This document shows positions 20,246-50,687 of a DNA stretch of 64,000 nt, in pieces; positions within the stretch are counted from its first letter, which is position 1, and each line of letters starts with the position of its first letter. The DNA is from Clavelina lepadiformis (Eukaryota; Chordata; Ascidiacea; Aplousobranchia; Clavelinidae). The notes below the pieces were generated by a model that saw nothing but the letters and a program-made list of their open reading frames with translations, made no database searches and was not told the DNA's origin. The stretch is from assembly GCF_947623445.1 (NCBI RefSeq), contig NC_135243.1, forward strand, positions 16,996,479-17,060,478, read 5' to 3'. The position numbers were made by a program, and so were the translations under genes.

Positions 20246-20287
20246 CGGATTTAATAGTCTGATACAGATTGTTCTTGGTATGAGTGT

Positions 20288-21320: not shown

Positions 21321-21853
21321 TGCCGTTACAAGGACGTAGTAATAACACGTTAAAGTAGGTAGGACAAATTAATGTGGTAAATAGTGAGGATCCCGACAAA
21401 ATTTTAGAAAAATAAAGGCCGGTTACCATAAAATACAATGGGGGAATCCCAAAATCGGGTTAAAACGCGTGGTTGGCTGAAGATAGCCTAGAAATGCGCT
21501 AAAAATAGTAAAAAACACAATACAACAATAATATTCAGTACTTTTGACCACGGAATTAAGTTCCGTGACCTAAACACTATAAAAAACAATAAAAAGTAGC
21601 GCTGAAAAGCGCTGTTTAAGAGCGTAGATAGGGGTGCCACTCAGGCTTAGCCTACTGAGCAGGAAAAATCAGATAAAATACAAATATCAGCAGTTATGTT
21701 AAAAATTAAACAAAATGTAAATATAAAATTTACAGAAAATTACTTTATGAACAATTTAAAACACTCACCGACCCTTTAAACCGGCTAAAACCGGAGAAAA
21801 TGCCAAAAAAAGATCAAGGACCTGCAGAGCTCAAAAATGACGTCCGAGCACGT
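21321..21853 (-). other. LINE-A0 5' UTR with paired hairpins
   Basis: The 5' UTR runs from the U2 junction to the ORF1 ATG. It contains a perfect hairpin, CACGGAA-TTAA-TTCCGTG in either strand (about 21550-21572), and an agcgctgaaaagcgct hairpin (about 21598-21613). Both recur at the same relative place in LINE-A2. The 5' boundary lies directly against U2 nucleotide 44. Confidence 0.75.
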
Positions 21854-21877: not shown

Positions 21878-22091
21878 ACCTCCACATCTTCCCGGACTCT
21901 TTTTATTCTATTCAAAATCCTCCTCGACCTCCAAACGTTCCTATATCGCCCGCCACAAGACGCCAAACTGACAAACTCAACCAGCAAGCAAACAGACGAC
22001 AATCTTCTGGCCGCCGCCCAGTTACATGATTTGCTGCTTGATGGTTATTGGACCGTGACAGTGGAGATATTTTGTGTCTATCCCGTGGAGG
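21878..22091 (-). promoter_or_regulatory. U2 upstream flank (promoter region), old copy
   Basis: Near-identical to the flank of functional units (for example 39702-39920) although the gene it served is wrecked. It includes the AATAAAAAG-like box about 25 bp upstream of +1 and the CCAAT-type ggttattgg motif. It breaks at about 22091, where RLE-LINE RT sequence begins. Confidence 0.75.
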
Positions 22092-23574
22092 CCAGGACCT
22101 GTATGAGCCAGCCGTTGGCTGTAGGCATCCTGTATCCGTCCGTCGACTCTTTGACACCCCTCACGAGGACTTCCATCACCAAGTCGAAGATGATGCCCGA
22201 CATGGGGCAGCCTTGGTGAACCCCCCGTTCGACGGGTATATGCCCGTTAAGGCCGCGTTTGGTTCTCACCGCACCCGACCCCCTTGCATACATGTCAGAC
22301 ACTACCCCGACCAGGTAGTCCGGCGCGTCAAAGTGCTTCAGAACATCTACAATGCATTCATGACGAACACTGCCGAAAGCGTTGCGGATGTCTAGGTACG
22401 ACACGACCAGAGGTCGACGCCGCATCTGCGCATCAGCAACAACAGAGTCGAGCAAAAACACATGCTCGTAGACACCTTCTGTGGGTACAAAACCTTTCTG
22501 CTCGGGTGAGGCCAATCCGCCGTCGAACGCCCAACGCTGAATTCGGCAGGCAATTACTGACGCATAGATCTTGTACAACGTGCAGCAGATGGAGATCGGT
22601 CTCCAGTTTCCCATATCGTTCATGTCACCCTCAACGTTTTTAGGGATGAGGGTGACGCGGCTCCTGCGCCACAAATCGGGTACGGTACGGCACGACCTAC
22701 AGATCTCGAACAGATCTGCAAGGAGCTTCCCCCTGGGGTCAAGATCTTTCCAAAAGCCGTACGTCAACCCATCTGGGCCAGGAGCCGAGCCTACATTGAG
22801 AGACCGGAGAACCGCTTCCACCTCTTGCGCAGTGATCGGTGCTTCATCATTCAGCGTGGTCGTATCAACCACTTCGTCTCTCACCTTATACTTCTGGGAT
22901 TGCATCCACTCCGGCATCGACGGGCGAACGCTTTCCTCCAACGTACGTAAATCCGTGCGGAATTTCTCCCCAATCACTTGAGGGTCTATCTCACAGCGGA
23001 GCTCACTATCGCAACCTTCAGTAATTTTCCGAACGGTGCCTTTCATGTCCTTCCAGAAAGCCGTGCGAAGGGCCGCACCTTTTCTATACCGGGCACTAGA
23101 CCAGGTCTCAGTCTGGTCACCGTCCCGACGACGGCGACCACGTCTTCTGAGACCTGGCTTTCGCACCACGGGTAAAGTGACGGACGTCTTTGCTACTTTC
23201 CTTCCGGACACTCTGTGCAGCCGTCCAGCACTCCAAATCCTTTGCTAGGTCAGACAATCCCTGATGGTATCCGTTCACTATTTTACGGAGCGAGTAAACC
23301 GGACTCGCCCCGGGCGACCGACTGACGCGATTCGAAGCGGTGCTATACTGATCCGACCTAGTTTCCTGGGTTACCAATTTATCCGGAGACAATAGGCGGG
23401 GGGTCGCACGGGCTCATCATTACTAGACGCAACCGCGACCGCAATTCCGGGTGTTCCGCCGACCGGGGCAGAATTACTAATATTAAAAACTATAGGAGTA
23501 TTATTATTATTGCTATTATTATGAGAAGAAGAGGACCCATCGCCTCCCTGTGGGACGTGCTCAACAGACTGCAT
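22092..23574 (-). CDS. RLE-class LINE copy 1: linker and RT N-terminal half
   Basis: Frames at 23574-23371, 23392-23117 and 23211-22092 together cover the linker and first half of a reverse transcriptase, with two or three frameshifts. RT landmarks are GSAPGPDGLTYGFWKDL, WRRSRVTLIPK, NWRPISICCTLYKIYASVI, QKGFVPTEGVYEHVF, LVVSYLDIRNAFGSVRH (first catalytic Asp in SYLD) and VERGVHQGCPMSGIIF. The YADD box and everything after is missing because U2 upstream flank begins at 22091. The RT block style fits R2-superfamily elements (Utopia/NeSL/R2). Confidence 0.85.
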
Positions 23575-23595
23575 CGCACGTTCCCGCGCTTCGAT

Positions 23596-25036
23596 TTATT
23601 GGGTGACCAGCGTCTCGACGATCTCAGTCAGGTTCAGCAGATCCGAACTGGTTGATGATGTTTCCGACTTCGCAGACGAGGACTGGGTGGTGGAGAAACA
23701 CGATATCTCTGGCGACGATAGAGTGGTCGAGCCAGAAGACAACTGGCTTGCTGGGATAAACGTGAACTCCGGCGACGATGGGAGAGTCGCACCCAACGAG
23801 GACTCGCTCGGAGACCGGACCGACATCTCGGGCGAGGGTGGAGGAGTCGCCTCAGAGGGTGGTCCACTCGGCGCCAGGAGCTTCACCTCGGTCGTGGATG
23901 GCAGAGTGTGCCCGAGTGAGTCGTCAGTGGAGCTGCCACTAACTGATTCCTGCTGTGGCGTCGGTTGCACACCATACAACGCCAGCTGTTGTGGCGTCAG
24001 CCGTTGCAGCCGGAGAAAGGTCTGGACTGCTGTCAGGGGCGACACTTGGATCGATGTTGCTGATCTTGATGTCGAATCTCCCTCTGGCATGTTTATTGGC
24101 GAGATGGCTGGTGGCGGGGCCTGGCTCTTTGGCTGGAGACATTGCTGCGGGGTGCTCTCTGCATAGTTGGTAGCTGCTTGCGGCGGAGAGCCCTTCACCT
24201 TCCTGCATGTTGCAAAGTGGGACCTTGCCCCTATCAACGTAGGGGCGACTGGCAGGATCGTAGCGCAGTTGCCACACGACGGGGCGTAGGTCAGTGTCAT
24301 GCCATGGGTGTTGAGGACATGCCGCTTTAACAACTGCGGACTTGGGAACGCCGCGGCGTGGCGGAAGCATCGGGTCTTGGGGCATGTTAGTTGGGAATTT
24401 ATAGACTCCGGTCCATTATAAGTTATGTTTATTTTTATACTATTGGTGGGCTGATCTACACTTACAACCGTGCTGTTAAGACCGGAGTTGGTCGGCATTG
24501 ACATTCCGGGATGTGCGGCGCGAAAGTGTGCACGTGCCGATGAGGCGTGCGCCCATCGTGTGTCGAAAATGGGGCAGAAGAATCCACACCTGACATCCTC
24601 TTTTGTCACGTCGGGGTGATCACAATTTTTAAAATGAAAAGAAACTATATGTTGGGTTTTCCCAGAAATTATCTTATTGCACTTGCTACACTCAAAATCA
24701 AATATTATCAACGGGGCAGAAATTCTAGTATGTCCATGTATTTTACTCAAGTGTTTATATAGGGGTGCAGAAGTTGCATAAGTGTGATCACACCCTTTGA
24801 TCAGGCAGAAATGACAAGTTCCCTACACCAAAGTACCGCGCAAAGATATTCAATGACTCACCTCTGGCTGGAATTGGGACAGGGGAGGGGCGCACACTTG
24901 CGGTGCTTGAGGGAGACGTGGTTACATCTGTGACTGTATTACTCTCGCCCGTACGCATCTCCATTTGTGAATATAAAAGGTATAAAAGTATAAAAGGTGT
25001 AAAAAAACAATAAAGTTCCAAAAGTTCACTATTCAA
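23596..25036 (-). CDS. RLE-class LINE copy 1: N-terminal C2H2 zinc-finger region
   Basis: The 384-codon frame 24750-23596 holds several zinc fingers: FECSKCNKIISGKTQHIVSF, FFCPIFDTRWAHASSARAHF (second Cys replaced by Phe) and TCPKTRCFRHAAAFPSPQLL...H, then a Pro/Ser-rich linker. The upstream frame 25036-24788 carries the start (MEMRTGES) and FARYFGVGNLSF, and a frameshift near 24800 separates the two. The fingers probably bind target DNA, as in R2 and NeSL. The second finger is weakened relative to copy 2 (CPIC). Confidence 0.8.
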
Positions 25037-26278: not shown

Positions 26279-26958
26279 CTTTTTTTTTCTTTTTTCTATC
26301 GATATTAAAAGTTGAAAGTTTTGGGTGTTTAAAAGTGGGGGGAAGTTGGGGATGGAAGCTTCGGTAGGAGTCGCATTCTTGAGTTTTGGTGATAAGGCTT
26401 CTTAGAGTTTCTTGATCTGGTCTTGCTTGGGTTGGATTTATGGTATCTTCAGAATCAATTATCATATTGAAGTCACCTGCCATGATGATTTCATTGGATG
26501 TATTCGATTCTATATGTTGCGCCAGTTGTAGAATTTGTTGTTTCCTGCAGAGTATGTTTTGGTAAGCTCCACCTGACTTTAGATATACATTTATGATTGA
26601 GATTTCCTTGTCTGCAATGCTTATATTAAGTTGCTGGATTCTATTTTTGATGATAATGTGTTGGTCTTTAGGAAGAAGTCTTTCTCTATTTTTCCGGGTA
26701 TATTTTCTATTTTCAATAGTTTCCTTGTCGATCAGGTGAGTTTCTTGAAGGCAGAGAATGTCTATTTCGTTGTGAACTATGTATTGTTCTATGTCTGGTA
26801 GAGAAGGCATGATGCTGTTACAGTTTATTGACGCTATTACTATGCTGATGCCCTCCATCGAAAAGATTTCTTCGTTTGCTTGGTGTTTGTTGTTGATTTA
26901 GTGAGGGGATGTTGATTTGCCTCTATGTTTTTTTGGTATGGGAGTGTCACTGCCGGAC
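26279..26958 (-). mobile_element. LINE-B' internally deleted copy with genuine U2 3' junction
   Basis: From 26958 to 26880 lies the end of LINE-B ORF1 (SGSDTPIPKKHRGK). From 26858 an ORF2 start (MEGISIVIASINCNS) runs through EN motifs QETH and AGDFN to SFHPQ, then jumps into a short 3' UTR and an AAAAAAGAAAAAAAAAG tail abutting U2 GTAGTATCTG. RT is deleted, as is a segment between Glu-Thr-Ile and TRKNRERL within EN. It shows where LINE-B 3' ends enter U2. The 5' side is fused to RLE-LINE RT sequence at about 26958. Confidence 0.8.
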
Positions 26959-27963
26959 GTGCCGCTCGAGCGAGTCGAGCATAAATACATGCTCGTAGAC
27001 GCCTTCTGTGGGCACAAAACCCTGCTGTTCCGGTGAGACCACTCCGCCGTCGACGGCCCAACGCTGAATTCTGCGGGCGATCACAGACGCATACACCTTA
27101 TAAAGAGTGCAACAGATCGAAATCGGTCTCCAGTTACTCAAATCGTTCATGTCACCCTCAGAGCTTTTAGGAATGAGAGTGACGCGGCTTCTGCGCCACG
27201 ACTCGGTTACGGTACGGCGCGACCTACAGATCTCGAACAGATCTGCAAGTAGCTTCCTCCTGGGGTCGAGATCCTTCCAAAAGCCGTACGTCAACCCATC
27301 CGGGCCAGGTGCCGAGCCTACATTGAGTGTCCGAAGAACCGCCTCTACCTGCTGCACAGTGATCGGTGCTTCATCATTCAGCGTTGGTATGTCCACCACT
27401 TCGTCTCTCACACGGTACTTCTGGGATTGCATCCACTCGGGCATCGCCGGGCGAATGCTTCCTTCCAACGAACGCAAGTCCGAGCGAAACTTCCTCTCAA
27501 TCGCTTGAGGATCGATTTCGCAACGGCGCTCACTAGCGCAACCTTCAGTAATTGTACGAACGGTACCTTTCATGTCCTTCCAGAACCTTGAGCGAAGGGC
27601 CGCACCTCTTCGGTACCGAGCGCTAGGCAGGGTCTCAGATCGGCCATCGTCTCCGCGACGTTGACCCCTTCTGCGCTTCCTCTGAGATCTTGCCATCGCG
27701 CCACGGTTGAATCGGGGTACAGACACTAGTTGTTCCTTCTGGGCACTCGTCCACAGCTCCAGATCTGCAAAGAGTTTTGCAAGGTCCGACCATCCCTGAT
27801 GGTAGCAATTTAAAATTGTACGGAGCGAGTCGGAAGGGCCCACTCCGGGTGATAGTCTGACGGCATCCGGGGCGTTATACTGAACCGTGTCTGTTTCCTG
27901 GTTTACCGATTGGTCGCGAGATAATCGGCGGGGTGAGCGCGTGACCTCATCATTGTTATGCAC
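26959..27963 (-). CDS. RLE-class LINE copy 2: linker and RT start
   Basis: An open frame with a basic linker (SQRKRRRGQRRGDDG) followed by RT landmarks SAPGPDGLTYGFWKDLDP, RRSRVTLIPKSSEGDMND, NWRPISICCTLYKVYASVI and QQGFVPTEGVYEHVF. It ends in LINE-B ORF1 sequence at 26958, before the first catalytic Asp. Closely related to copy 1 but clearly a separate insertion. As a member of the R2 superfamily it should have had a C-terminal RLE, lost here. Confidence 0.85.
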
Positions 27964-28045
27964 ATCCGCGACCGCAATTCCGTGTGTTCCGCCGACCGGG
28001 GCAGAAGAACTATCCGTAAGTTTATTAGTAAGTCTATCAGTAGAA

Positions 28046-28681
28046 CTATCGGGGGGGGGGGCTATTATTAACGTCTAAACTATTTGGTGAGGACCCAGTG
28101 CCGGTGGGGGGGACGTGCTCGACAGACCGCTCCACTCGATCCCGTTCGGCGAGGTAACTAGATACCGTTTCCCAAACAATAGCAGAAAGGTCAGTCCCGC
28201 TGCTCGATCCCCACGAAGGTGGATACATCACCCCGGAGGACGACTCGCTAGACGAGGGGTCCGACGTCGCTGGCGAAGATGGAGTTGTCGACTCGGACGA
28301 CGATCTGTCTGGAGAGAGGTACGTCACTTCGGGCGAGGATGGAATTGTCGGCCCTGACGACGATCCGTCTGGTGAGAGGTACGTCACTTCAGGCGAGGAT
28401 GGAATTGTCGGCCCGGACGACGATCCGTCGGGTGAGAGGTACGACACTTTAGGCGAAGATGGAATTGTCGCCGTTGGAGAGGGGCTGCTGGATGAGAGGT
28501 ACGTCACCTCGGCTGACGGTGGTAAGGTGTGCACGAGGGAGTTGCTGGTAGAATTGCAACTCGACCTGCTCGACGCTTCCTCCGGGTCCGCTGATGTTGA
28601 TTGCACTCCATACAAGGCCAACTGTTGAGGAGTTAGCCTTTGCAGCCGTAGAAACGGTTGCACTGCGGTCAGAGGTGACAC
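28046..28681 (-). CDS. RLE-class LINE copy 2: Pro/Ser linker with 20-aa repeats
   Basis: In the same frame as the zinc-finger part upstream, separated from it by a stop near 28780. It contains about three 60-bp tandem units (28,316-28,495) encoding SPEVTYLSPDGSSSGPTIPS-type repeats. A run of 11 G at 28051-28061 lies where the frame shifts relative to the RT part. Replication slippage, or sequencing error in the homopolymer, may explain the shift. Confidence 0.7.
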   Translation of the reverse strand: MSPLTAVQPFLRLQRLTPQQLALYGVQSTSADPEEASSRSSCNSTSNSLVHTLPPSAEVTYLSSSSPSPTATIPSSPKVSYLSPDGSSSGPTIPSSPEVTYLSPDGSSSGPTIPSSPEVTYLSPDRSSSESTTPSSPATSDPSSSESSSGVMYPPSWGSSSGTDLSAIVWETVSSYLAERDRVERSVEHVPPTGTGSSPNSLDVNNSPPPR

Positions 28682-28783
28682 GCGGATCGATGGAGGAGAC
28701 GATGTTGAATTTGCCTCGGACTCGGGCTTATTGATGGGCGAGATTGCCGGGGGCAGGGTCTGTGTCTGCGGCTGGAGACGTGT

Positions 28784-29644
28784 TCACGGGGTGCTCTCTG
28801 CAAAATTGATGGTCGAACTAGGCGGAGAGCCCATCGTCTTCCTGCAAGTTGCGAAATGCGATCTGATCCCTAGCAATGTCGGGGAAACTGGCAGGCTCAT
28901 AGCATAGTTACCACACGACGGGGAAAAGACGAGCGACATGTTTTTCATATGTCGTTTCAGCAGCTGAGGGCTGGGGAACGCCGCGGCGTGGCGCTGGCAC
29001 GTGGTCTTTGGGCAGAATAATTGTGAACTGATTGACTCCGGTCCATTGTAAATTACATTTATCACTATTTTACCGTCAGGCTGGCCTATGTTTAGAATTG
29101 AGTCGTTACTATTTAACGAACTGTTAAAGCTGAGACCGGAGTTGGTCGGCATCGACGACTCGGGATGTGCGTTACGGAAATGTGCTCGCGCCGATGAGGC
29201 GTGCGCCCATCGTGTGTCACAGATGGGGCAGATAAATCGACACCTGACGTCCTCGTTCGTTACGTCGGGGCGATCACAAGTTTTAAAGTGGTGTGAGATT
29301 AGGTGGAGAGTTTTACCAGTTAAGACTTGTTTACATTTATTACATTCATAATCAAACATTACTGCTGAAGAGGAAAAACCAATAAAGCCGTGAGATTTTA
29401 TCAAATGTTTATATAGCGGAAGAGAGGTTGCAAACGAGTGATCACACCCTTCGCTCGGGCAGAAAAACGAAAGGTTCCCTACACCGTAGTACCGCGCAAA
29501 AATGGAAATGCACTTACCTTCAACACCTGAGGGAGCAGGGGAGAGGCATGCGCGCGCGGTCCGGGGCAGAGAGGTGGAGGTTGGGACAGTAAAAATGTTT
29601 GCGGCTGTACCAGTATCCATTTTGTTTATGGGGCCAGGGGACAA
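28784..29644 (-). CDS. RLE-class LINE copy 2: N-terminal zinc-finger region
   Basis: A 286-codon frame beginning MSPGPINKMDTGTAANIF. Fingers in order: CPSEGCDHSFATSLPLYKHL...H (C2H2), CNKCKQVLTGKTLHLISHHF..C, ICPICDTRWAHASSARAHFR..H (C2H2) and CPKTTCQRHAAAFPSPQLLK-type. Four finger-like units is more than R2 (one to three). The DNA-binding N-terminus would select the insertion site. The start could be the internal Met of MDTGTA, which matches the MEMRTG start of copy 1. Confidence 0.8.
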   Translation of the reverse strand: MSPGPINKMDTGTAANIFTVPTSTSLPRTARACLSPAPSGVEGKCISIFARYYGVGNLSFFCPSEGCDHSFATSLPLYKHLIKSHGFIGFSSSAVMFDYECNKCKQVLTGKTLHLISHHFKTCDRPDVTNEDVRCRFICPICDTRWAHASSARAHFRNAHPESSMPTNSGLSFNSSLNSNDSILNIGQPDGKIVINVIYNGPESISSQLFCPKTTCQRHAAAFPSPQLLKRHMKNMSLVFSPSCGNYAMSLPVSPTLLGIRSHFATCRKTMGSPPSSTINFAESTP

Positions 29645-29754
29645 ACGGATATAAAACTAATTCTACAACTATATATACTAAGGATAAATTAAAAATTAAG
29701 TAAAAGGCTTAAATTAAAATTATAAAACTAGACTATTTTAATTAATATGAGGTT

Positions 29755-30670: not shown

Positions 30671-30695
30671 GGAATATATATAAAGTTGATTGCTG

Positions 30696-30958: not shown

Positions 30959-31123
30959 ACGACATTTTATTTTATCGGTGACGCAGGTGTACAACATTTA
31001 TCGATTGATCGATCGTATCACATCGACCATCCATCCGCCCATCGTCTTTTTTTTTTTTTTCTCCTCTTTTTCTTTTCCTCAAACTACTTCAATACAAACA
31101 AGAGTATCCCACCAGGGTGGGAG

Positions 31124-31142: not shown

Positions 31143-32908
31143 GAGACCGTTGCAGTAGATTGTGGCGAAGGTCAGCAGATTAGTTTAATATTTGCACGAT
31201 TCCATGAGGGAGGGTAGGTTTTGATGTAATATGGCCAGTTATTGTTCAAAAATAGAAAGTTTTCAAGAGCGGTCAGCTTTGGACTTTTTCCCCTTTCGAG
31301 AGCTGGTTCTCGCTTTCCTGGGGGTCTGTGTCACATTGATGGTGAGTTGACGTCCCTGTAGCCCCAGTGTGCGTTTTTCTGCTTCTGAGGTTTCTAAGGA
31401 GGAGATAGTTTGAAATTCCGTTGAGCTTTCCGCTTCGGATGAATCGGATTGTTGTCTCTCAGGCTCTGACAGGTCTGTATTATTGGTATTTGTTTCGTTA
31501 TTGTTTTGATTTCCTTGCAGGTTGTTCGAGTCGTCCTGACTTGATTGAGAGGTGTGGTTCTCGTTTTGGGATGGGGTTATGTTTGTATCTGATTTTGATG
31601 GCGCTGGGTGCTCAGTCGAATCAGGTTGAGAAGGCGGGTCCTCGACAGGTCCTTGTAGGGGGGGTGATGACGATTTTAGGCTGGAATTCTGTTGCGATGA
31701 GTGTTGTTGACCCCACGTAGCGTTTGCAGGAAGGGCTGATTGGTTGAGGGAGGAGGGTGGGTTTTTACTTCGTAGTTTTTTACATTCTTGCAATTTGTGC
31801 CCATAGTTTCTGCAGTAGGCACACTTAATAATGGGGGTGCCCGGAAGGGTAACGGATACGGGTAGACTATTTATGGATATTTGTTTCGGTAGTAGTTCCT
31901 GTTTTAATTGATCGATTTGTAGGTGAAGGTATTCACTGTGGAATTGCGGGAAGGCCTTGTGTGCTCCAAACTTAAAGCGTCGAAGGATGCCCCATCCCCG
32001 GGAGTGTCCCAGATGTACGATATCTTCATCTGGGATGTCCAGTGGTACTGGGTAAAGGGTAATTGTGGTGGGCGGTGGAGATGGCTCAGTAACCCACATA
32101 TGCAGCGATGCACCATTTTTGGTTTCCAGAATTCTTGGTGAGGAATAGGTTTTTAACATGTGCTTGATGGCTTTTTTGGAGTCATCATTTGCCTTGAAGG
32201 TGGTGGAGAATATTTTATTTTTGTGATCTGCCTGTGCCATACCAAAGATGTTCTCGGCGAGATAAAAAAGGGGTCCGTCTTCGATGAATAAATCCATGAA
32301 GGAAGTGATGTCAAAAGTCTCGGCCACTTCGTTGACGTTGAAATGGCATAGTAAGGTGCGAGTTTGTTTAAAAAAAACCATTGTGGTACAATATCCGTAA
32401 TAATAACTTGCCGGAGTTGGCTGAGTTAATAAATTCGGAAATTTAACAATTCCCGACAAAAATCAAAAAAATTAGTGTCAGGATACCACAAACTATCTTG
32501 GGGAAATCCCTGGTTCTTGTAAACCGCGTGGTTGGCTGAAATAGCCTAGAAATCGCGGAAATAAACGAAAAAAACACACAAAGGGGTGATAAGCACAAAG
32601 AATAATATGAAATTCGGGTTTAGAACCCAAAAATCTACTTAAAACAAAGGTTTTAGCGCTGAAAAGCGCTGTTTGAGTACGTAACTAGCAGTCACAGTTT
32701 TGAGAGTGACAGGATTTAGGCCTATCACTAGAATACGCGAAAATACACATATAAACAACAAAAACTACTGCATGTAAGAGTAAAAAAGCTAGCAAAAGTA
32801 TTTAAAAGTATTTTAAAACACTCAACAACCCCTTACACTGAATAAATCCAGAGTAATTGCCAAAAATCGATCAAGACCTGCGGAGCTCGAAAAACACGTC
32901 CGAACCCG
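31143..32908 (-). mobile_element. LINE-A1, 5' portion, copy 1
   Basis: Tx1-clade-like LINE inserted after U2 nt 45. It holds a 527-bp 5' UTR (32382-32908), an intact ORF1, about 70 bp of spacer, and ORF2 only as far as FATIYCNGLT at 31143-31175. ORF2 then joins U2 nt 170-172, so a deletion removed the rest of ORF2, the 3' UTR and most of U2. The 5' UTR has hairpins (about 32600-32625 and 32653-32668). Confidence 0.9.
31263..32381 (-). CDS. LINE-A1 ORF1 protein, intact, copy 1
   Basis: Encodes 372 aa from MVFFKQTRTLLCHF; the frame is open for 26 codons further upstream, but MVFFKQ is shared with all related ORF1 copies and marks the start. Residues about 98-165 (TLYPVPLDIPDEDIV, WGILRRFKFGAHKAFPQFHS) resemble the RRM-like region of Tx1/L1 ORF1. 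A CCHC knuckle C187-C200 (CAYCRNYGHKLQEC) follows, then a Ser/Asn/Glu-rich tail and a basic end (RKARTSSRKGKKSK). Such proteins bind LINE RNA. It differs from the LINE-A2 ORF1 at roughly a third of positions, so A1 and A2 are distinct subfamilies. Confidence 0.9.
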   Translation of the reverse strand: MVFFKQTRTLLCHFNVNEVAETFDITSFMDLFIEDGPLFYLAENIFGMAQADHKNKIFSTTFKANDDSKKAIKHMLKTYSSPRILETKNGASLHMWVTEPSPPPTTITLYPVPLDIPDEDIVHLGHSRGWGILRRFKFGAHKAFPQFHSEYLHLQIDQLKQELLPKQISINSLPVSVTLPGTPIIKCAYCRNYGHKLQECKKLRSKNPPSSLNQSALPANATWGQQHSSQQNSSLKSSSPPLQGPVEDPPSQPDSTEHPAPSKSDTNITPSQNENHTSQSSQDDSNNLQGNQNNNETNTNNTDLSEPERQQSDSSEAESSTEFQTISSLETSEAEKRTLGLQGRQLTINVTQTPRKARTSSRKGKKSKADRS

Positions 32909-33248
32909 ACAGATACTACACTTGATCTTAGCTCTTGAGAGCCGAGAAGCGATACCTCCACATCTTCCCAGACTCTTTTTATTCTTCTCAAAATCCTCCT
33001 TGACCTCCAAACGTTCCTATATCGCCCGCCCGTCACAAGACGCCAAACTGACGAACTCAACCAGCCAGCAGACAGACGACAATGTTCTGGCCGCCCAGTC
33101 ACATGATTTGCTGCTTGATGGTTATTGGACCGTGACAGTGGAGATATTTTGTGTCTATCCCGTGGAGGCCATTTCTTGCATTTTCAGCTTTTTGCTATCA
33201 AACTGGGAAATACCCTAAAACGATCGCTTTCATTAGTACTCACAACAA
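32909..33248 (-). pseudogene. RNU2: U2 5' stub (nt 1-45) with its promoter flank, upstream of LINE-A1, copy 1
   Basis: U2 nt 1-45 (stem I through GTAGTATCTGT) occupy 32909-32953 and the upstream flank runs to 33248. The promoter appears intact, so a transcript starting at U2 +1 would read into LINE-A1. The flank breaks at cacaacaa, where LINE-A2 3' sequence begins. Confidence 0.9.
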
Positions 33249-33782
33249 TTTCAAGCATGGTGTTGTTTCAGTAAAATGGATAAAAACAGCATTGGAGATG
33301 GATATTATTATCATGGATTATTTCAGGATGAGCAGAGCAATGTTGATTTGTTGTAAAGTCCATGAAGACGATTGAGAAGTTGTTGAAACAGGATGATTTC
33401 CAGGTTTCAGATGTTGACAGTAAGTATTTGTATTAATTTAAGTTTCATCATTTTGATGAAGGTATAAATAAAAAGAAGGGGTTATGTAGTTATGGTACAT
33501 AATTGAGTATATAGGGTACATTGACAATAAGGTAGGACATATAGTACATATTAACTGATATAAAACAGATGATAACACATAAGAGTTCGTGTAGAGATAA
33601 GGTATCGTAACAATATGTGTGGGTCATTATAGGTAATGAGAGAAAACGATTAAATTTGGTGGGCCGGTGAGTGACACAAAAACGGTTGAGCTATATTAGA
33701 AAACATTCACAGTAATTAAAGTTAAATGGATGAGAAAAACAATTGTACAATCTTCTGGTGTAGAGTTGTAGCTTCGATCTTT
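33249..33782 (-). other. LINE-A2 3' region, copy 1
   Basis: Non-coding sequence between the ORF2 stop and U2 upstream flank. There is no poly-A end and no U2 target sequence at 33249, so the natural 3' end of LINE-A2 is not present. The part near 33249-33430 has plus-strand features like splice sites (gttgtttcag, gacaGTAAGT) but no long frame. It may be 3' UTR or captured DNA. Confidence 0.6.
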
Positions 33783-36700
33783 TCATTCGTAGATTCTTTT
33801 GAATTTTGTTCTGGTTTTCCAAATGATGCTATTTGTTGTGAGGGTTTTGTCCGTACAGTAGGAATTCTTTTCATCGAGTGTCTCTTTGTATGAGATTAGA
33901 TTTGACTTAAAAATGTTGAGGTAATGTAGAATTTTGACTCTTTCAGCAATTTCTCGTTGGAATTTGTTGTATAATAGTAAGTCTCGGTCAAAGGTGATAT
34001 TTGTTGAGAACCAACGTAGAATGTCGGATTCAATTTGCTTGAGGATTTCTTGAGTTATTGGACAGTCCAGCATCAGGTGGTTAATGTCATCACGAGTTGA
34101 TCTACAGAATTTACAGTTTGTTATTCTGATCTGTTGTTGGGGGGTAGTGAAGAGTCGTTGTTTTTTGTAAAAGGAGCCCCATAGGAAACCTTGATGGGCA
34201 ATCAAATATGAATGGCTTCTTATTTGGAGAGAGGGTGACCATCCAGTCATATTTTTTAGAGTGGTGAGTTTCCAAGAAATCATCTCTTGTTGATGATTTT
34301 GGATAATTGACGGTGATGAGTGTTTGTTGAGATATAGAAGGTATAGGGTCTTTTGAGTTTGCTCTGCCAGAAGGAAATTTTTGTTGTTGTTATTGATCAG
34401 GTCGTAAGTTTTTAGTGTCTTTTCCCAGGTGCGATTTGGGGTGGGCCGGTATCTAATTGAATTTGAGTATAGGTTTGGGGATATTTTCATTAATTTTGTA
34501 CCAATGTTATACTTGGCCCAACATGAGAAGAAACTATTTTCGGTGTTTTCCAATAATATTCTTTTCATTTTGTAGAGGAATGTGGAGTGTATCCGGGATG
34601 CGACATGGAGAATTTCCAGCCCTCCTTCATTAAAGGGGGCGATGAGCTTATTTCTTGCCACGGGTTCCAATTTTCTGGGATACCAGAGAAACTTGAAGAT
34701 GAGGTTGGTGAGTTGATTGCAAATTTTTATTGGCGGTAGGAAGAGGGTCGCGGTTCTGATAATGTGGGGTAGAAATAGGGCGTTTATTAAATACTTTCTT
34801 CCCAGAATGGACAAACGTCTCATTTTGTGCAGATTGTTGAGTTTTTTTATTGTAAGTATTGCTTTTTCCCAGTTTACGGTAGCATCGTCATCGGAGTGTG
34901 AGAATGTCGTTCCAAGTATTTTCATGTTAGTTGTGATCGGGATATTGGGAAAATGCTGATTTATCTGGTTTTGTAGAAGAGGTGTTGAGACGAAAAATGC
35001 AGATTTAGCTTCGTTTAATTTGAGTCCGGAAAAATTGCTGAATTCATTTATGATTAGGAGAGCGTTGGATATGGTTGGTATGTCCTTAGCCAGGAGAATG
35101 GTGTCGTCGGCGTACTGCTGCAGACTGAGGGAAGTAGATCTGATCTTCGGGCAATTGTGGTAAGAGCTATTTGAGATTTTGTGTGCTAAAACATTTGTTA
35201 CTATGGTAAAAATAAGCATACTCAGGGGGCATCCCTGTCGGACGCCGCAGGAGATTGGAATCTCTTGAGAAAGGCCTCGAGTAGTTTGGATGTAAGCAAG
35301 CGGCTGGTCATAAATTATTTTAATCCAGTTGACTATGGAGCTAGGTAAATTTAATTTACTGAGAAGTCGAATAATAAAGTTGTGATTCACTTTATCGAAG
35401 GCTTTGGTGAAATCTAATTTTAAAATTGCCAGTCGGTCTTGATTGTCATTTTCTTGTTGCAGGGCCGCCTGGATGTTGAGAAGGATGGTTTCCAGGGATC
35501 TTCCAGGAATTCCGCATTGCTGAGAGGAGGAAATGAGGTGGGTGACGATTGGTGTTATTCTATTTTTGAGAATGATGCTGAGGATTTTATAGTCCATATT
35601 TAAGATCGAAATAGGTCTCCAATTTTTAATTAAAAGTTTATTGCCTGATTTTGGGATAAGTCTAATGAATGCAGATCTCTGAGAGTGGGTGAGCTGGGAT
35701 TGGAAATAACAATTGTTGAAGACTTCTTGGAGCAGTGGCGAAAGGAGGTGGGAGAATCTCTGATAAAAACTGGCTGTAAGACCGTCCAGACCAGGTGCGG
35801 AATGTTTATTAAGTTGTTGTATAGCTGCTTTTATTTCAGCTATGTCGATGAAAGGCGAGAGATTATTTTGAGGATTGGATTCAATTGCAGGAAGGTTGTT
35901 CAGGTATTGAGAAAGTTCTTCATCTGTTTTATTTGTTTCGGTGGGGTCGGTTTTCCAGAGTTGGGAATAGAATTTGTGAATGGTTTGCTGAATGGTGATG
36001 GGATTATTTGTTATTGTGCTGTCCTTTTCTTCATCCAGTTGCAATTTGTTTATGTTGAGTTTTTTTTGGTGTTTACCTTCGAATATTTTAAAAATTCTTG
36101 ATGGATCTTCTTTGTCCGTGACTGTTTTCATTCTTGATCGTATTCTTTCACCTTGTTGCTGTTGCTCTTGAATGTTTTGAACTTTCTTTTTTAAATTGAG
36201 AATTTCCAGATTTTTGTCCGGGGTGAGGTGTTCATTGAGAGATTCTAATTGGTACTGATAGTTTTGCAATAGATTTTGGGTTTTGCGTTTTTTCTTACTT
36301 GCTAAATGAATAACAGATCTTCTGAGGCTTGTTTTGAATTGTTCCCACCATTTCAGTGGATCGAGAGAGCGGAGAGGCTTTTGGGACAAGGCTCGTATGG
36401 TATTGTCGATTTGATTGCCGAATTGTGTGTCTTGAAGAAGGGAGTCGTTGAGTTTCCAGTATGTTCTGCCGTGTTGATGGTCGGGTCGTGGAAGAGTAGT
36501 CTGAAGAGATATTAAATTTCTGAATGAATGGTCAGAGAAGTGTGCGGTTGAAATGTAAGTGGATTTTGTTATTTTGGTTGTCAGAGCACTATTGGAATAT
36601 ATTCTATCAATTCTTGTACTGGCTTTAGCTGTGATGTAAGAGAAGCTTCTTTGGTTTGGGTGCAGATATCGGAAGGCGTCGTTGAGGTCAAAGAATTTGA

Positions 36701-37259
36701 GATATTCAATCATTTTTTTATGGTCATTTCTTATTTGAATTTTATTGATTGAATCTTTGCTGTCTAGAACTAGATTGAAATCTCCCAGCCATAAGGTGTC
36801 GTCATGGGGAGTGGTGGTGAGGTGTTGATAGATATGTTCAAGTTGAAGAATTCTTGCAGAGGATGAGGAGGAGGAGGTTCCGGAGGTTAGATACGAGTTG
36901 ATAATAATGACCGTTCTACTGTTGATTACTAATTTTATAAGATGAGATCGATGTTCGGTGATGATGGTGTGGGTTTTGACAAAAGGTAGGATATAGTTCG
37001 ATATGATGAGAACTGTTCCAGATTTGAAGTATTTGTCTTTGGAGTTGGTACTTGGTGCGTTGGTGAAGGATGTCAAGTTGTTTTCTTTTTGCCAGTAGAG
37101 AAATTGTTTCGGGTTGATTCGATGGGCTTCTTGGATTGCCAGAATGTCAATTTTATGATCACGCATAAAGGAGGGGATATGTCGGAGAGATTTGGTGAGG
37201 CCGTTGCAGTTTATGGTTGCTATAGTTAAAGCTTTGTTTTTTCTTTGAATAGTATCCAT
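33783..37259 (-). CDS. LINE-A2 ORF2: endonuclease-reverse transcriptase, intact, copy 1
   Basis: An uninterrupted 1158-aa protein. APE/EEP endonuclease: N18 (TINCNG), E44 (IQEAH), D160 and N162 (LGDFN), D218 (RIDRI), SDH 242-244, a complete catalytic set. Coiled-coil-like stretch about 320-375. RT about 470-780: SAPGLDG 487-493, IPKSG 535-539, NWRPISIL 546-553, LDFTKAFDKVNH 615-626, GVRQGCPLS 672-680, YADD 716-719. C-terminal CCHC-like C1049-x2-C1052-x8-H1061-x4-C1066. EN type, domain order and U2 target fit the Tx1 clade, in which Keno families are known to target U2 genes. The start codon lies 38 bp after the ORF1 stop. It looks able to encode active enzyme. Confidence 0.93.
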   Translation of the reverse strand: MDTIQRKNKALTIATINCNGLTKSLRHIPSFMRDHKIDILAIQEAHRINPKQFLYWQKENNLTSFTNAPSTNSKDKYFKSGTVLIISNYILPFVKTHTIITEHRSHLIKLVINSRTVIIINSYLTSGTSSSSSSARILQLEHIYQHLTTTPHDDTLWLGDFNLVLDSKDSINKIQIRNDHKKMIEYLKFFDLNDAFRYLHPNQRSFSYITAKASTRIDRIYSNSALTTKITKSTYISTAHFSDHSFRNLISLQTTLPRPDHQHGRTYWKLNDSLLQDTQFGNQIDNTIRALSQKPLRSLDPLKWWEQFKTSLRRSVIHLASKKKRKTQNLLQNYQYQLESLNEHLTPDKNLEILNLKKKVQNIQEQQQQGERIRSRMKTVTDKEDPSRIFKIFEGKHQKKLNINKLQLDEEKDSTITNNPITIQQTIHKFYSQLWKTDPTETNKTDEELSQYLNNLPAIESNPQNNLSPFIDIAEIKAAIQQLNKHSAPGLDGLTASFYQRFSHLLSPLLQEVFNNCYFQSQLTHSQRSAFIRLIPKSGNKLLIKNWRPISILNMDYKILSIILKNRITPIVTHLISSSQQCGIPGRSLETILLNIQAALQQENDNQDRLAILKLDFTKAFDKVNHNFIIRLLSKLNLPSSIVNWIKIIYDQPLAYIQTTRGLSQEIPISCGVRQGCPLSMLIFTIVTNVLAHKISNSSYHNCPKIRSTSLSLQQYADDTILLAKDIPTISNALLIINEFSNFSGLKLNEAKSAFFVSTPLLQNQINQHFPNIPITTNMKILGTTFSHSDDDATVNWEKAILTIKKLNNLHKMRRLSILGRKYLINALFLPHIIRTATLFLPPIKICNQLTNLIFKFLWYPRKLEPVARNKLIAPFNEGGLEILHVASRIHSTFLYKMKRILLENTENSFFSCWAKYNIGTKLMKISPNLYSNSIRYRPTPNRTWEKTLKTYDLINNNNKNFLLAEQTQKTLYLLYLNKHSSPSIIQNHQQEMISWKLTTLKNMTGWSPSLQIRSHSYLIAHQGFLWGSFYKKQRLFTTPQQQIRITNCKFCRSTRDDINHLMLDCPITQEILKQIESDILRWFSTNITFDRDLLLYNKFQREIAERVKILHYLNIFKSNLISYKETLDEKNSYCTDKTLTTNSIIWKTRTKFKRIYE

Positions 37260-37297
37260 CAGATTACGTATAGTATAGCTTGTTTTGGCCGGAGCGT

Positions 37298-38351
37298 TTA
37301 ACAGCGTTTTCCTTTTTGTTTATTAGCTTGCTTGTTTCTCGCATTACCTTTTTTTGAAGTTGCAGGAGGAGGAGTAGTGAAGCAAAGTTTCTCTTGAAGT
37401 CCTTTAAGTCGCTTTTCAGCATCGGAAGTGTCTAGTGACGAGACAGTCACTAAATCAGATGAGCCGGAGGATTCCTCCGAGGTTGACGGGTCTTGGGATT
37501 CTGAAACAACAACGGGAGTGGTGTCCTGATCTTTGTCTGCTGTAGAGTTGGTCTTGGTTTGTTTCGGAGAGAGGGCATCAGATTCTTCAATCACCAGAGG
37601 GTCTGCAGGAGGGTTGGGTTGCTCCGTGGGAACGGTGGATGGTAGCGCGGTTTCACTTGGAGTTGGTTGTTGACGACCCCACGTTGAGTTTGCAGGGAGG
37701 GCAGATTTGTTGTTGGAAGGAGGTGGGTTTTTATTTTTTCTTTTGTTACAATTTTGAATGAGGTGGCCGAAATTCCTGCAATAGGCACATTTACGGATAG
37801 GTGATCCCGGGAGGGTAACTGATACAGGTTGGCTATTAATTATGATTTGTTTAGGGATCAAATTCTCGTTGAGCTGATCAATCTGGAGATGTAAATAGTC
37901 GTTATGAAATTGCGGGAATCCTTTATGGGAGCCGAACTTGAACCGACGCAGAATGCCCCAATGCTGGGAACGTACCAGGTGTACGATTTCCTCATCAGGG
38001 ATATCCATCGGGACTGGGTAGAGGGTGATCGTAGCTGGTGGAGGAGCTGGTTCGTCAACCCACATGTGCATAGGTGTACCATTTTTAGGTACAATCAGTT
38101 AGTTGTCTTTGCGAATATGTATTTATCATTTTTTTGATGGCGCTTGTAGAGGCGTCATCTGGTTTGAAAGTAATAGAGAAAATTTTTTCTCTATAATCGG
38201 GTTGTGTCATTCCGAAAATGTTGTCGGAGATTGATACAAATGGTCCTTCGTGAATAAATAATTCCATAAATGAGGAGATGTCAAAACTTTCAGAAATTTC
38301 GTTGGAGTCGAAGTGACATAGCAAGGTTCGGGTTTGTTTAAAGAAAACCAT
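37298..38351 (-). CDS. LINE-A2 ORF1, frameshifted, copy 1
   Basis: Start MVFFKQTRTLLCHFD at 38351. The frame breaks after TYSQRQL because a 4-bp duplication at about 38098-38104 turns CAACTGATTG into CAACTAACTGATTG; LINE-A0 lacks it. The rest (MHMWVDEPAPPPATITLYPV, knuckle CAYCRNFGHLIQNC, Ser-rich tail ending KQKGKRC) is open from 38071. The whole protein cannot be made by ordinary translation. The same break is in all three copies, so it predates the amplification. Confidence 0.9.
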
Positions 38352-38880
38352 AGTAGTTACACGGACGTATTCGTAACACGTCAAGGTAGGCAGAACAGAG
38401 TAAAACGGTAAATAATGAGGACCCCAACACAATTTTAGAAAATTAAAGGCCGGTTACCATAAAATATAACAGGGGAATCCCAAAATCGGGTGAAAACGCG
38501 TGGTTGGCTGAAATAGCCTAGAAATGAGCTAAAAGTAGTTAAAAACACAATAAAACGAAACTATTCAGTAATTTTGACCACGGAATTAAGTTCCGTGACC
38601 TAAAAACTATAGGAAACAATAAAAAGTAGCGCTGAAAAGCGCTGTTTAAGAGCGTAAATAGGGTTGCCACTCGGGCTTAGCCTACTGAGCATGAAAATTC
38701 AGACAAATACAAATATCAGCAGTTATGTAACAAATTAAGCAAAGTGTAAGTGTAAAAGTTATATATAATTAGTTTATAAACAATTTAAAACACTCACCAA
38801 CCCTTTACACTGAATAAATTCAGAGTAATTGCCAAAAATCGATCAAGACCTGCGGAGCTCGAAAAATACGTCCGAACCCG
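38352..38880 (-). other. LINE-A2 5' UTR, copy 1
   Basis: Runs 529 bp from U2 nt 45 to the ORF1 ATG. Contains the hairpins CACGGAACTTAATTCCGTG (about 38579-38597) and AGCGCTTTTCAGCGCT (about 38629-38644). The first 60 nt, beginning CGGGTTCGGACGT, are nearly identical to LINE-A1. Confidence 0.85.
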
Positions 38881-38925
38881 ACAGATACTACACTTGATCT
38901 TAGCTCTTGAGAGCCGAGAAGCGAT
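38881..38925 (-). pseudogene. RNU2: U2 5' stub (nt 1-45) upstream of LINE-A2, copy 1
   Basis: Exact U2 nt 1-45, ending TATCTGT, then LINE 5' end CGGGTTCGG. The upstream flank (38926 onward) is a normal unit flank, so the promoter is intact. Confidence 0.93.
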
Positions 38926-39489: not shown

Positions 39490-39513
39490 AAGAGTATCCC
39501 ACCAGGGTGGGAG

Positions 39514-39701
39514 ATGGGCCGAAGCAGCAGGTACTGCAATAGCTGCACAACCCTCAAACGAGCAGGCGCAAGCGCCTAGCGTCGTTCACCGTTCAAAAAT
39601 CCGTTTAATCGAAGAGCAGTTCAATGAACTGCGTCCCAGGGATTAAACTGAGAAGAACAGATACTACACTTGATCTTAGCTCTTGAGAGCCGAGAAGCGA
39701 T
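39514..39701 (-). ncRNA. RNU2: U2 snRNA gene 1 (uninterrupted)
   Basis: Starts ATCGCTTCTCGGCTCTCAAG. Stem I GCTCT/AGAGC; branch-point recognition GTGTAGTA (GUAGUA at nt 35-40); stem IIa CTCAG/CTGGG; stem IIb GCAGTTC-ATT-GAACTGC; Sm site GGATTTTTGA; stem III AGGCGC-TT-GCGCCT; stem IV GCAGC...GCTGC with the conserved loop TATTGCAGTACCT. U2 pairs with the intron branch site in the spliceosome. About 188 nt, like human U2; the exact 3' end is set by length and is uncertain by a few nt. Confidence 0.95.
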
Positions 39702-39722
39702 ACCTCTAAATCTTCCCGGACT

Positions 39723-39731
39723 CTTTTTATT
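39723..39731 (-). promoter_or_regulatory. TATA-like box at about -30 to -22 of U2 (representative)
   Basis: U2-sense AATAAAAAG, kept in every unit and in the old flank at 21,898. It could be part of the snRNA core promoter (PSE region), whose consensus in this organism is unknown. Confidence 0.4.
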
Positions 39732-40289
39732 CTTCTCAAAATCCTCCTCGACCTCCAAACGTTCCTATATCGCCCGCCACAAGACGCCAAACTGACGAAC
39801 TCAACCAGCCAGCAGACAGACGACAATCTTCTGGCCGCCGCCCAGTCACATGATTTGCTGCTTGATGGTTATTGGACCGTGACAGTGGAGATATTTTGTG
39901 TCTATCCCGTGGAGGCCATTTCTTGCATTTTTCAGCTTTTTGCTATCAAACTGGGAAATACCCTAAAACGATCGCTTTCATTAGTACTCACAACAAATGT
40001 AGTAACAGCAGCAGCAGCACAGTTGACTTGAAGAAACTTTCACAAGATAAATCGGGGATTTATCCATTTTATCAAACCATTCCTGCTGTCACACAGGGCC
40101 GACAGTCAATTTCTCATTTTACCGGTGACGCAGGTGTACAACATTTATCCCATAGACATTAGTCGATCATCGATCAATCCATCCGCCCATCGTCTTTTTT
40201 TTTTTTTTTTTTTTTTCCTCCTCCTCCTCTTCTTCTTCTTTTCTTCAGACTACTTTAATACAAACAAGAGTATCCCACCAGGGTGGGAG

Positions 40290-40477
40290 ATGGGCCGAAG
40301 CAGCAGGTACTGCAATAGCTGCACAACCCTCAAACGAGCAGGCGCAAGCGCCTAGCGTCGTTCACCGTTCAAAAATCCGTTTAATCGAAGAGCAGTTCAA
40401 TGAACTGCGTCCCAGGGATTAAACTGAGAAGAACAGATACTACACTTGATCTTAGCTCTTGAGAGCCGAGAAGCGAT
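40290..40477 (-). ncRNA. RNU2: U2 snRNA gene 2 (uninterrupted)
   Basis: Same sequence as gene 1, 776 bp away. The next unit leftward in U2-sense order (higher coordinates) is the LINE-A1 unit of repeat copy 2. Confidence 0.95.
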
Positions 40478-47182: not shown

Positions 47183-47220
47183 CAGATTACGTATAGTATA
47201 GCTTGTTTTGGCCGGAGCGT

Positions 47221-50212: not shown

Positions 50213-50687
50213 ATGGGCCGAAGCAGCAGGTACTGCAATAGCTGCACAACCCTCAAACGAGCAGGCGCAAGCGCCTAGCGTCGTTCACCGTTCAAAAATC
50301 CGTTTAATCGAAGAGCAGTTCAATGAACTGCGTCCCAGGGATTAAACTGAGAAGAACAGATACTACACTTTTTTTTTTCTTTTATTTCAAAGATATTACA
50401 AGGTAAAGTAAAAAAAGTTTTGAGTGTGTTGAGTGGGGGTTGTAAAAGAGTCAGGGGTCTCTTTTGCCTACCTTCCGATAGGACAAAAAATTTCCCAACC
50501 TTGATTTGACTTGCATTTTGCTCACAAGTGCTACGAGCAGGGGCAAGCCTAAAACCTGGTGAGAGGTGGAAGGTGGTATGTTCGGGAAAGGGCACCAAAC
50601 TCGGCGGCATCAACCGAGACCCTTTCTACATCAGTAAACTGATGGACCACTACACTTGATCTTAGCTCTTGAGAGCCGAGAAGCGAT
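50213..50687 (-). pseudogene. RNU2: U2 snRNA gene interrupted by the 278-bp insert, unit 1
   Basis: U2 nt 1-39 lie at 50649-50687 and nt 31-188 at 50213-50370; AAGTGTAGT (nt 31-39) is present on both sides. GUAGUA is separated from stem I by the insert, so a functional U2 is not expected unless the insert is removed. Confidence 0.93.
50371..50648 (-). mobile_element. 278-bp A-tailed insert in U2, copy 1
   Basis: Flanked by the 9-bp duplication AAGTGTAGT, in U2 sense. It begins GGTCCATCAGTTTACTGATG (perfect 6-bp hairpin CATCAG/CTGATG), then a second hairpin (AAAGGG, CTCGG/CCGAG, CCCTTT), and ends with AATATCTTTGAAATAAAAG and A10. The last ~80 nt resemble the LINE-B' 3' tail (CCCCCACT, CAAAACTTT, TAATATC, AAAGAAAAAAAAA). 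So it is either a SINE sharing a LINE 3' end or a 5'-truncated LINE-B relative. Confidence 0.8.

What the first reader, a model, noticed from the sequence alone, without database searches (positions are those of the whole stretch)
32909..38925. LINEs enter U2 snRNA genes next to the branch-point-recognition sequence
LINE-A1, A2 and A0 all start at U2 nt 44-45, 4-5 nt past GUAGUA. The LINE-B' 3' end and the 278-bp insert both abut the GUAGUA side (nt 31-39). So several elements use one site of about 10-15 bp in the most conserved part of U2. U2-targeting Tx1-clade LINEs (Keno) are known from vertebrates; an invertebrate array with this density of occupied units is, as far as I know, unusual.
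Basis: partly seen in the sequence, partly recalled or inferred. Interest (0 to 1): 0.85.

Follow-up and report, generated by a model that had tools for sequence, protein, structure and literature searches.

The report
U2-gene retrotransposons and their SINE parasites
In a genome that is very probably a sea squirt's, several families of self-copying DNA elements, some long and intact and some short and probably dependent on others, sit at the same spot inside a splicing-RNA gene (U2), and signs are that they copy part of that gene along with themselves.

Summary
The genome is very probably that of the tunicate Clavelina lepadiformis; the window covers the edge of a large U2 snRNA array. In 334 kb read, 30 of 255 U2 3' halves carry an insert. 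All 30 resume at one base, U2 nt 31, after a poly-A tail. The 5' joint is fixed by family: nt 44/45 for three LINE families, nt 39 for SINE S, nt 33 for SINE T. LINE copies with open ORF1 and ORF2 (AP endonuclease + RT) exist; ORF2 evolves under purifying selection. Of 14 LINE 3' ends found genome-wide, all map to the U2 region and the 11 read abut U2. The nick lies 8-10 nt from the site reported for Keno and Utopia; Tx1 membership could not be tested. A SINE relative on chromosome 1 begins exactly at U2 nt 1, and U2-leader variants follow LINE families. I infer that template RNAs include host U2 leader, which guides the 5' joint. In passing: a LINE family in U5 snRNA genes (25 of 25 3' ends).

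The parts
33249..38880 (-). LINE A1 (family A), 5,632 bp, 3' end deleted; same block again at 43172-48803 and 56773-62404
   Evidence: 5' joint after U2 nt 45, 3' side joins unit nt 482; three window copies identical
33783..37259 (-). ORF2 of A1, 1,158 aa: AP endonuclease + reverse transcriptase + C-terminal zinc-knuckle motif
   Evidence: Pfam Exo_endo_phos 1.3e-15, RVT_1 1.3e-36; best PDB match human L1 ORF2p, 257 bits vs R2 92 bits; motif columns
37298..38071 (-). 3' part of frame-broken ORF1 of A1 (257 aa, CCHC motif)
   Evidence: ORF1 split over two frames; aligned with open ORF1s
38881..38925 (-). U2 nt 1-45, 5' remnant of the U2 gene entered by A1
   Evidence: 45/45 identity to unit
31143..32908 (-). 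LINE A2 (family A), 1,766 bp, 3' part lost; copies at 41066-42831 and 54667-56432; ORF1 at 31263-32459
   Evidence: 5' joint after U2 nt 45, 3' side joins unit nt 170
32909..32953 (-). U2 nt 1-45, 5' remnant entered by A2
20001..21853 (-). LINE A0 relic (family A, 80% to copy 143571), preceded by U2 nt 31-44
26346..26967 (-). LINE B' relic (family B sequence, nt 1441-2143 of the full element); an A-rich tail follows and abuts U2 nt 35-59 at 26254-26278
   Evidence: 90-93% to family B; U2 match
50371..50648 (-). SINE S, 278 bp, longest open frame about 85 codons, poly-A tail
   Evidence: U2 nt 1-39 on its 5' side, nt 31 on its 3' side
51434..51711 (-). SINE S, second window copy (a third begins at 63972 and runs past the window end)
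39509..40477 (-). two uninterrupted U2 genes (39509-39701, 40285-40477) in 776-bp units; further ones at 49432, 52334, 53110, 53886 and 63033
   Evidence: Rfam U2, 152.3 bits each; unit map
22081..24822 (-). broken pieces of an R2-type element (RT; finger-like N-terminal part) at the array edge; not shown to be U2-targeted
   Evidence: RVT_1 2.6e-21 in 22081-23244
26950..29656 (-). second broken copy of that R2-type element (RT start, C2H2-finger-like part); not shown to be U2-targeted
   Evidence: for 26950-28074 best PDB match R2, 62 bits vs L1 37; zf-C2H2 below Pfam's cut-off in 28787-29656

Best explanation
This is a U2 snRNA gene-specific retrotransposon community. SHOWN: three autonomous-looking LINE families (A, B, C; ORF1 with a CCHC motif, ORF2 with AP endonuclease and RT) and two short non-coding groups (SINEs S and T) occupy the same site in a tandem U2 array, in sense, with the poly-A end at U2 nt 31. 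INFERRED: the LINE endonuclease nicks the bottom strand at about nt 30/31 (exact base blurred by the A-run) and reverse transcription of LINE or SINE RNA is primed there (target-primed reverse transcription). The template RNA also carries host U2 sequence at its 5' end, most simply because it starts at the U2 promoter (U2 nt 1). The cDNA end complementary to this U2 leader anneals to the U2 sequence left of the nick, so the 5' joint is precise and inherited. The apparent target-site duplications (15, 9 and 3 bp) are then the overlap of leader and target. This is the counterpart of what is proposed for R2 elements whose RNA keeps upstream 28S sequence.
For: Fixed 3' joint: 30 of 30 poly-A-tailed inserts resume at nt 31. 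Family-fixed 5' joint: 17 of 17 LINE joints at nt 44/45, 14 S at nt 39, 5 T at nt 33 (the S/T labels were set by the joint, and the 4 S and 3 T bodies then fell into two sequence groups). After merging copies alike except for poly-A length, 17 bodies, 15 of them with a nt-31 joint. None of the 17 LINE inserts is 5'-truncated; two decayed copies left of the window also join at U2 nt 45 (L031, L032). Locus specificity: 14 of 14 3'-end hits (6 A, 4 B, 4 C) at C4 16.96-17.38 Mb. Leader in the RNA: the chromosome 1 relative of T (74%) is preceded directly by U2 nt 1-33 (30/33) and starts at U2 nt 1, with no trace of U2 spacer upstream (p 0.83) or of U2 downstream (p 0.45). U2 T43A sits next to 4 of 4 B copies read, including one with its own 3' end (200597), and T45A next to A-143571 (3 identical copies) and A-263917; 0 of 225 empty units carry either. 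Coding function: endonuclease and RT motifs kept in 8 of 8 ORF2s (which residues are catalytic is recalled); ORF2 dN/dS 0.14-0.22 for six A pairs, 0.16 and 0.19 for two B pairs (0.35 for the third, dS 0.007). LINE/SINE link: S ends TGTAATATCTTTGAAATAAAAG(A)n, close to family A TTTTAATATCGTTGAAATAAAAG(A)n. The R2 precedent for leader annealing and uniform joints is in PMC3774820 (passages).
Against: The full-length leader rests on one old chromosome 1 copy, which lacks poly-A, tail and a recognisable duplication and could instead be a stand-alone U2-related RNA gene. For the LINEs only nt 43-45 are shown to travel, and these could be the element's own first bases. No RNA data. S and T carry no leader-linked variants. 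snRNA promoters are not known to me to drive 6-kb transcripts (recalled). No ribozyme matched the two LINE 5' ends tested, which fits leader retention but removes the best-known release mechanism. By eye, two SINE tails (S', T) and the 3' end of B-200597 resemble no other LINE 3' end. One B-like fragment (L030, C4:17.80 Mb) lies outside the array without U2, but has no intact ends. A-C dN/dS (0.09-0.10 for three of four pairs) rests on dS above 2, near saturation. Many copies are array duplicates, so independent insertions are far fewer than copies. Genome searches score only the best candidates, and 3 of the 14 3' ends were not read.
Confidence: 0.7

Rival explanations
1. Classic target-primed reverse transcription with staggered cuts: the top strand is cut at family-specific places (nt 45, 39, 33), giving true 15-, 9- and 3-bp duplications; no U2 sequence is in the RNA.
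For: Fixed 3' joint and direct repeats on both sides are what this predicts.
Against: SINEs that borrow a LINE enzyme should share its top-strand cut, yet S and T differ from the LINEs and from each other. Element-linked bases at nt 43/45 are absent from 225 of 225 empty units. U2 nt 1-33 accompanies the chromosome 1 copy.
Confidence: 0.22
2. The LINEs are simply tunicate members of Keno (Tx1 clade). This concerns identity and does not exclude the mechanism above.
For: U2-specific, AP endonuclease, L1-like ORF2. Keno is reported from frogs, fish, lancelet and hydra.
Against: The published Keno 3' flank starts at U2 nt 39; here it starts at nt 29-31 in the same numbering. No RT tree with Tx1 references could be made.
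Confidence: 0.3
3. Copies spread only by unequal crossing-over and gene conversion in the array after a few ancient insertions; little or no retrotransposition today.
For: The 9.5-kb A1/A2 block occurs three times at 99.99%; A-143571 is 100% identical at three places.
Against: 15 distinct bodies with nt-31 joints, families 39-40% identical in ORF2 all at one site, a copy with a different 3' end, open ORFs and low dN/dS. Nested insertions reuse the site.
Confidence: 0.1

Closest known systems
Keno (Tx1 clade, U2-targeting LINE)
   Same: AP-endonuclease LINE inserted in the conserved 5' region of U2 genes; animal hosts
   Different: Published 3' flank starts at U2 nt 39 (PMC4640811); here at nt 29-31 in the same numbering. 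Phylogeny not tested.
Utopia (NeSL clade, U2-targeting LINE)
   Same: Strict U2 specificity in some hosts, several families kept in one array, occasional tandem insertion (PMC4640811)
   Different: Utopia has a restriction-like endonuclease and the nt 39 joint; these LINEs have an AP endonuclease.
R2 elements and R2/R1 SIDEs
   Same: Site-specific elements in a multicopy RNA gene with short non-autonomous partners; for R2, host leader in the RNA is linked to uniform 5' joints (PMC3774820 passages, PMC3414825 abstract)
   Different: U2, not 28S; no HDV-like ribozyme match; by sequence the SINE heads are not LINE 5' ends.
SINEU (snRNA-headed SINEs; recalled, paper not seen)
   Same: SINE RNA beginning with snRNA sequence
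   Different: Recalled as dispersed in crocodilians; S and T sit in U2 genes themselves.

Membership tests
Keno / Tx1 clade | ORF2 with AP-like endonuclease and RT | tested here: met
   Pfam for A1, motifs in 8 ORF2s
Keno / Tx1 clade | 3' flank begins at U2 nt 39 | tested here: not met
   30 of 30 joints at nt 31 here, Rfam position 29; published site
Keno / Tx1 clade | RT groups with Tx1/Keno in a tree | not testable with these tools
   No Tx1 reference met; best PDB match human L1 ORF2p at 257-259 bits vs R2 at 92 for A1 fits an L1-like LINE only
Keno / Tx1 clade | Copies confined to U2 genes | tested here: met
   14 of 14 3' ends in the U2 region, the 11 read all abut U2; one end-less fragment elsewhere; protein-level search not answered
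Utopia (NeSL clade) | Restriction-like endonuclease, no AP endonuclease | tested here: not met
   N-terminal Exo_endo_phos domain
Utopia (NeSL clade) | 3' flank begins at U2 nt 39 | tested here: not met
SINE (for S and T) | Short, non-coding, A-tailed, moved by a LINE | tested here: inconclusive
   267-294 nt bodies (plus one 572-nt composite), longest frame about 85 codons in those checked, poly-A, LINE 3' joint; mobilisation by the LINE is inferred
SINE (tRNA/7SL/5S-headed) | Internal Pol III promoter | tested here: not met
   Simple consensus scan: no B box in any of 7 bodies; A-box matches only in composite S_154815
snRNA-headed SINE (SINEU-like) | 5' end of the RNA is snRNA sequence from its nt 1 | tested here: inconclusive
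   Chromosome 1 copy starts at U2 nt 1, one copy only; the S body alone has no Rfam U2 match
R2-like 5' processing | HDV-like ribozyme at the 5' end | tested here: not met
   No HDV-like Rfam match at E <= 10 for the A1 and B heads; C not tested

The most novel reading that the evidence does not exclude
The U2 snRNA promoter acts as the transcription start for a whole guild of retrotransposons. LINE mRNAs and SINE RNAs begin at U2 nt 1, possibly with an snRNA-type cap, and use the U2 leader as a homology arm that writes the 5' joint. The SINEs are U2-headed parasites of the LINEs at the same nick. Together with the U5-specific LINE family entering at U5 loop 1, this genome would show repeated colonisation of spliceosomal RNA genes at their most invariant sites.
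Probability: 0.4. Interest if true: 0.78.

Novelty: new variant of a known kind. Interest (0 to 1): 0.64.

Why it matters
U2-targeting LINEs are known, but a trio of LINE families with U2-site SINEs beside them, sharing one nick while differing by family at the 5' joint, is a natural experiment on how the 5' end of a LINE insertion is made; the second half of integration is called very poorly understood in the abstract of PMC6895275 (search listing). If the leader model is right, snRNA promoters join rRNA promoters as hosts for site-specific elements, and the direct test is simple 5'-end mapping. The U5-specific family suggests that spliceosomal RNA genes are broader targets than the U1, U2 and U6 listed in 2015 (PMC4640811).

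Tried and rejected
U2-derived SINE body: Rfam scored S plus its leader as U2 (29.9 bits; T plus leader 17.1 bits, E 0.25), but the S body alone gave no U2 match, and LINE heads with a leader scored 34.6-44.6. One 16-nt motif matches U2 nt 129-144 (p about 0.001-0.003 for five related bodies). A U2 origin of the body is therefore not claimed. A hairpin pair in the SINE head shows 2 of 16 pairs with double changes over 7 rows; single folds of three heads had z-scores of -1.4 to -1.8: a weak sign of structure. The chromosome 1 copy itself gave no Rfam match at E <= 1.

Template jump onto U2 RNA as the source of the chromosome 1 leader: disfavoured, since the joint (nt 33 | CGGG) is the same as in the array. 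Duplication of an array segment to chromosome 1: disfavoured, no spacer or downstream U2 recognisable. Utopia-type joints (TCTGTTCTT directly after an element end) at the left edge: none recognised. COX1 search for the species: no match. DOI 10.1093/gbe/evv096, tried for the SINEU paper, was another paper. No tree was built.

Papers: PMC4640811 (abstract, sections 5, 6, 7, 11 and passages); PMC3774820 (passages); PMC3414825 (abstract/outline); PMC10884593 and PMC11109543 (passages); PMC4494063 (abstract, unrelated); other papers as search listings only.
Full report
Setting. The window is contig C4:16,996,479-17,060,478 of a 209,060,895-base genome in 95 contigs. The genome paper of the sea squirt Clavelina lepadiformis gives 210.1 Mb in 102 scaffolds, with chromosomes of 28.79, 26.54, 25.74, 25.07, 24.62, 20.77 and 20.45 Mb for numbers 1-7. 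Contigs C1-C7 here are 28.78, 26.53, 25.73, 25.07, 24.62, 20.77 and 20.45 Mb. I take the species as very probable, not proven.

The array. In the window U2 genes lie on the minus strand in 776-bp units. A 29-nt piece of U2 (nt 33-61, up to 2 mismatches) occurs 192 times on one strand and 165 times on the other in the genome; the 100 places listed are all on C4, the other 257 were not listed. I read 'big' coordinates 1-334000, that is the window plus 27 stretches of 10 kb to its right; the array continues beyond. A second arm on the plus strand begins after an N gap at 167442-167641, and another N gap lies near 135566, so the relative orientation of the arms is an assembly statement. Left of the array (C4 16.95-17.02 Mb) lies a decayed edge with old copies.

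Joints. There were 37 gaps between unit matches; one (22095-30968) is not an insert of this kind. The other 36 give 17 bodies when poly-A length is ignored. Thirty have a poly-A tail of 6-39 A and in 30 of 30 U2 resumes at nt 31. Six (three copies each of A1 and A2, the ones in the window) have lost their 3' ends and join unit nt 482 or 170. Among 261 U2 5' halves matched exactly, 225 are empty, 17 lead into a LINE at nt 44/45, 14 into S at nt 39 and 5 into T at nt 33. Because the tail merges with the A's at nt 31-32, the nick may be at 30/31, 31/32 or 32/33. In the Rfam alignment our nt 31 is position 29. The 3' flank of Utopia, said to be identical to Keno's, starts at nt 39 (PMC4640811). 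The sites differ by 8-10 nt.

The LINEs. Family A: 143571 = 187780 = 210651 (6,514 bp), 263917, 277376, and the window's A1 and A2. Family B: 80795 and 91454 (identical but for one A of the tail), 300789 (99.0%), 200597 (98.5%, with a different 3' end). Family C: 233981 and 316515 (99.98%). ORF2 identities: A-C 65-66%, A-B and B-C 39-40%. ORF2 has an AP endonuclease and an RT domain (A1), the motifs of L1 and a C-terminal zinc-knuckle motif. The best solved relative is human L1 ORF2p, 257 and 259 bits for A1 and C, against 92 for R2 with A1. dN/dS for ORF2 is 0.14-0.22 for six pairs within A; three of four A-C pairs give 0.09-0.10 but with dS above 2; A-B and B-C pairs were saturated and give no value. 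ORF1 of A-143571 is only 52% identical to that of A-263917 and A-277376 although their ORF2s are 93-95% identical, so 5' halves have probably been exchanged. In five pairs compared between families, the first 14 bases of the LINEs are 86-100% identical and bases 15-36 are 73-95%, while bases 37-140 are 34-57% identical between A and B or C.

Specificity. A 3'-end probe of A hit 6 places, and a joined B and C probe 8 places; 14 of 14 lie at C4 16.96-17.38 Mb. I had read the 3' flank of 11 of these 14, and all 11 abut U2 nt 31; the other 3 lie beyond the stretch read. 5'-head probes gave 14 rows each, all on C4. One row, C4:17,801,851, is outside the array: a B-like fragment without its first 15 bases and without U2. 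Two decayed copies (L031, L032) again have U2 nt 1-45 directly upstream. These searches score only the best candidates. The protein-level search did not complete.

The SINEs. Nineteen short inserts give 7 distinct bodies, one of them a composite; labels S and T were set by the joint and agree with two sequence groups. S and T share about 190 nt of head (68-72%). S ends like LINE A; S' and T end differently. S_154815 is S' inserted upstream of S with U2 nt 31-39 between them, and in L029 a LINE C 3' end sits in the same way upstream of an S relic. This suggests that U2 nt 1-39 is enough for targeting. An S probe hit 18 places, all on C4 at 16.96-17.35 Mb. A T probe hit 22 places, 21 on C4 and one on C1.

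The U2 leader. The C1 relative (L028 1034-1225, 74%) is directly preceded by U2 nt 1-33 (30 of 33) and nothing U2-like was recognised further up or down. It lacks the SINE tail, poly-A and a recognisable duplication. With it as probe, only the five T copies and itself were found. Leader-linked bases T43A (4 of 4 B copies read) and T45A (A-143571 and its two duplicates, A-263917; also the A0 relic) are absent from all 225 empty units. I read both facts as host U2 sequence being part of the RNA. For R2, uniform 5' joints go with host 28S sequence kept on the RNA, and joint variants can then be passed on (PMC3774820, passages). No HDV-like ribozyme matched the A1 or B heads.

In passing: U5. A gap in the U5 array on C2 holds a LINE between U5 nt 54 and nt 37 (18-bp duplication TCGCCTTTTACTAAAGAT), with an ORF1 frame of 460 codons and an ORF2 frame of 1,151 codons. 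Its 3' end occurs 25 times in the genome search. In 25 of 25 U5 TCGCCTTTT follows; in L054 and L058 the last one or two element bases differ, in L051, L054 and L058 the U5 sequence breaks off soon after, and L049, L056 and L060 carry small changes. How many of the 25 are independent insertions was not worked out. ORF2 is 22-23% identical to the U2 LINEs, and its best solved relative is again L1, 192 bits against 94 for R2. PMC4640811 (2015) lists only U1, U2 and U6 among targeted snRNA genes. My one search for U5 targeting found 2,078 papers with at least 3 of 5 terms; none of the 12 shown held 'U5 snRNA gene'. This is no proof that it is unpublished.

Verdict. The known-kind part is a U2-specific AP-endonuclease LINE. 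The parts that I have not seen described are the shifted nick, the family-fixed 5' joints, the U2-headed SINE copy and the U5 family. The leader mechanism is an inference that 5'-end mapping would settle.

Noticed in passing
L036 1-5901 (C2:7377500-7383400) and L037-L060: LINE family inserted in U5 snRNA genes just before the conserved loop 1; 25 of 25 genomic 3' ends found are followed by U5 TCGCCTTTT.
   Followed up: partly
window 22081-24822 and 26950-29656: Two broken copies of an R2-type element (RT plus finger-like parts) at the array edge; no U2 joint could be shown.
   Followed up: partly
big 33249-284138 (window to L023), ORF1 of family A: Family A copies with near-identical ORF2 carry two very different ORF1s (52% identical), implying exchange of 5' halves between co-resident LINEs.
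   Followed up: partly
L008 near big 135566 and L011 near big 167442: Two 200-N assembly gaps; the U2 array changes orientation at the second one.
   Followed up: no
L028 1001-1225 (C1:22742900-22743124): U2 nt 1-33 fused to a T-SINE-like body without tail: either an old retrocopy or a stand-alone U2-related RNA gene.
   Followed up: partly
SINE bodies S, T and L028 (body positions about 100-122): A 16-nt motif GCTTGCNCCTGCTCGT shared with U2 nt 129-144 (13 nt in the L028 copy; p about 0.001-0.003).
   Followed up: partly
L004 4019-4063: Sub-threshold histone 3' stem-loop match (23.2 bits, cut-off 34) in the 5' UTR of LINE B.
   Followed up: no
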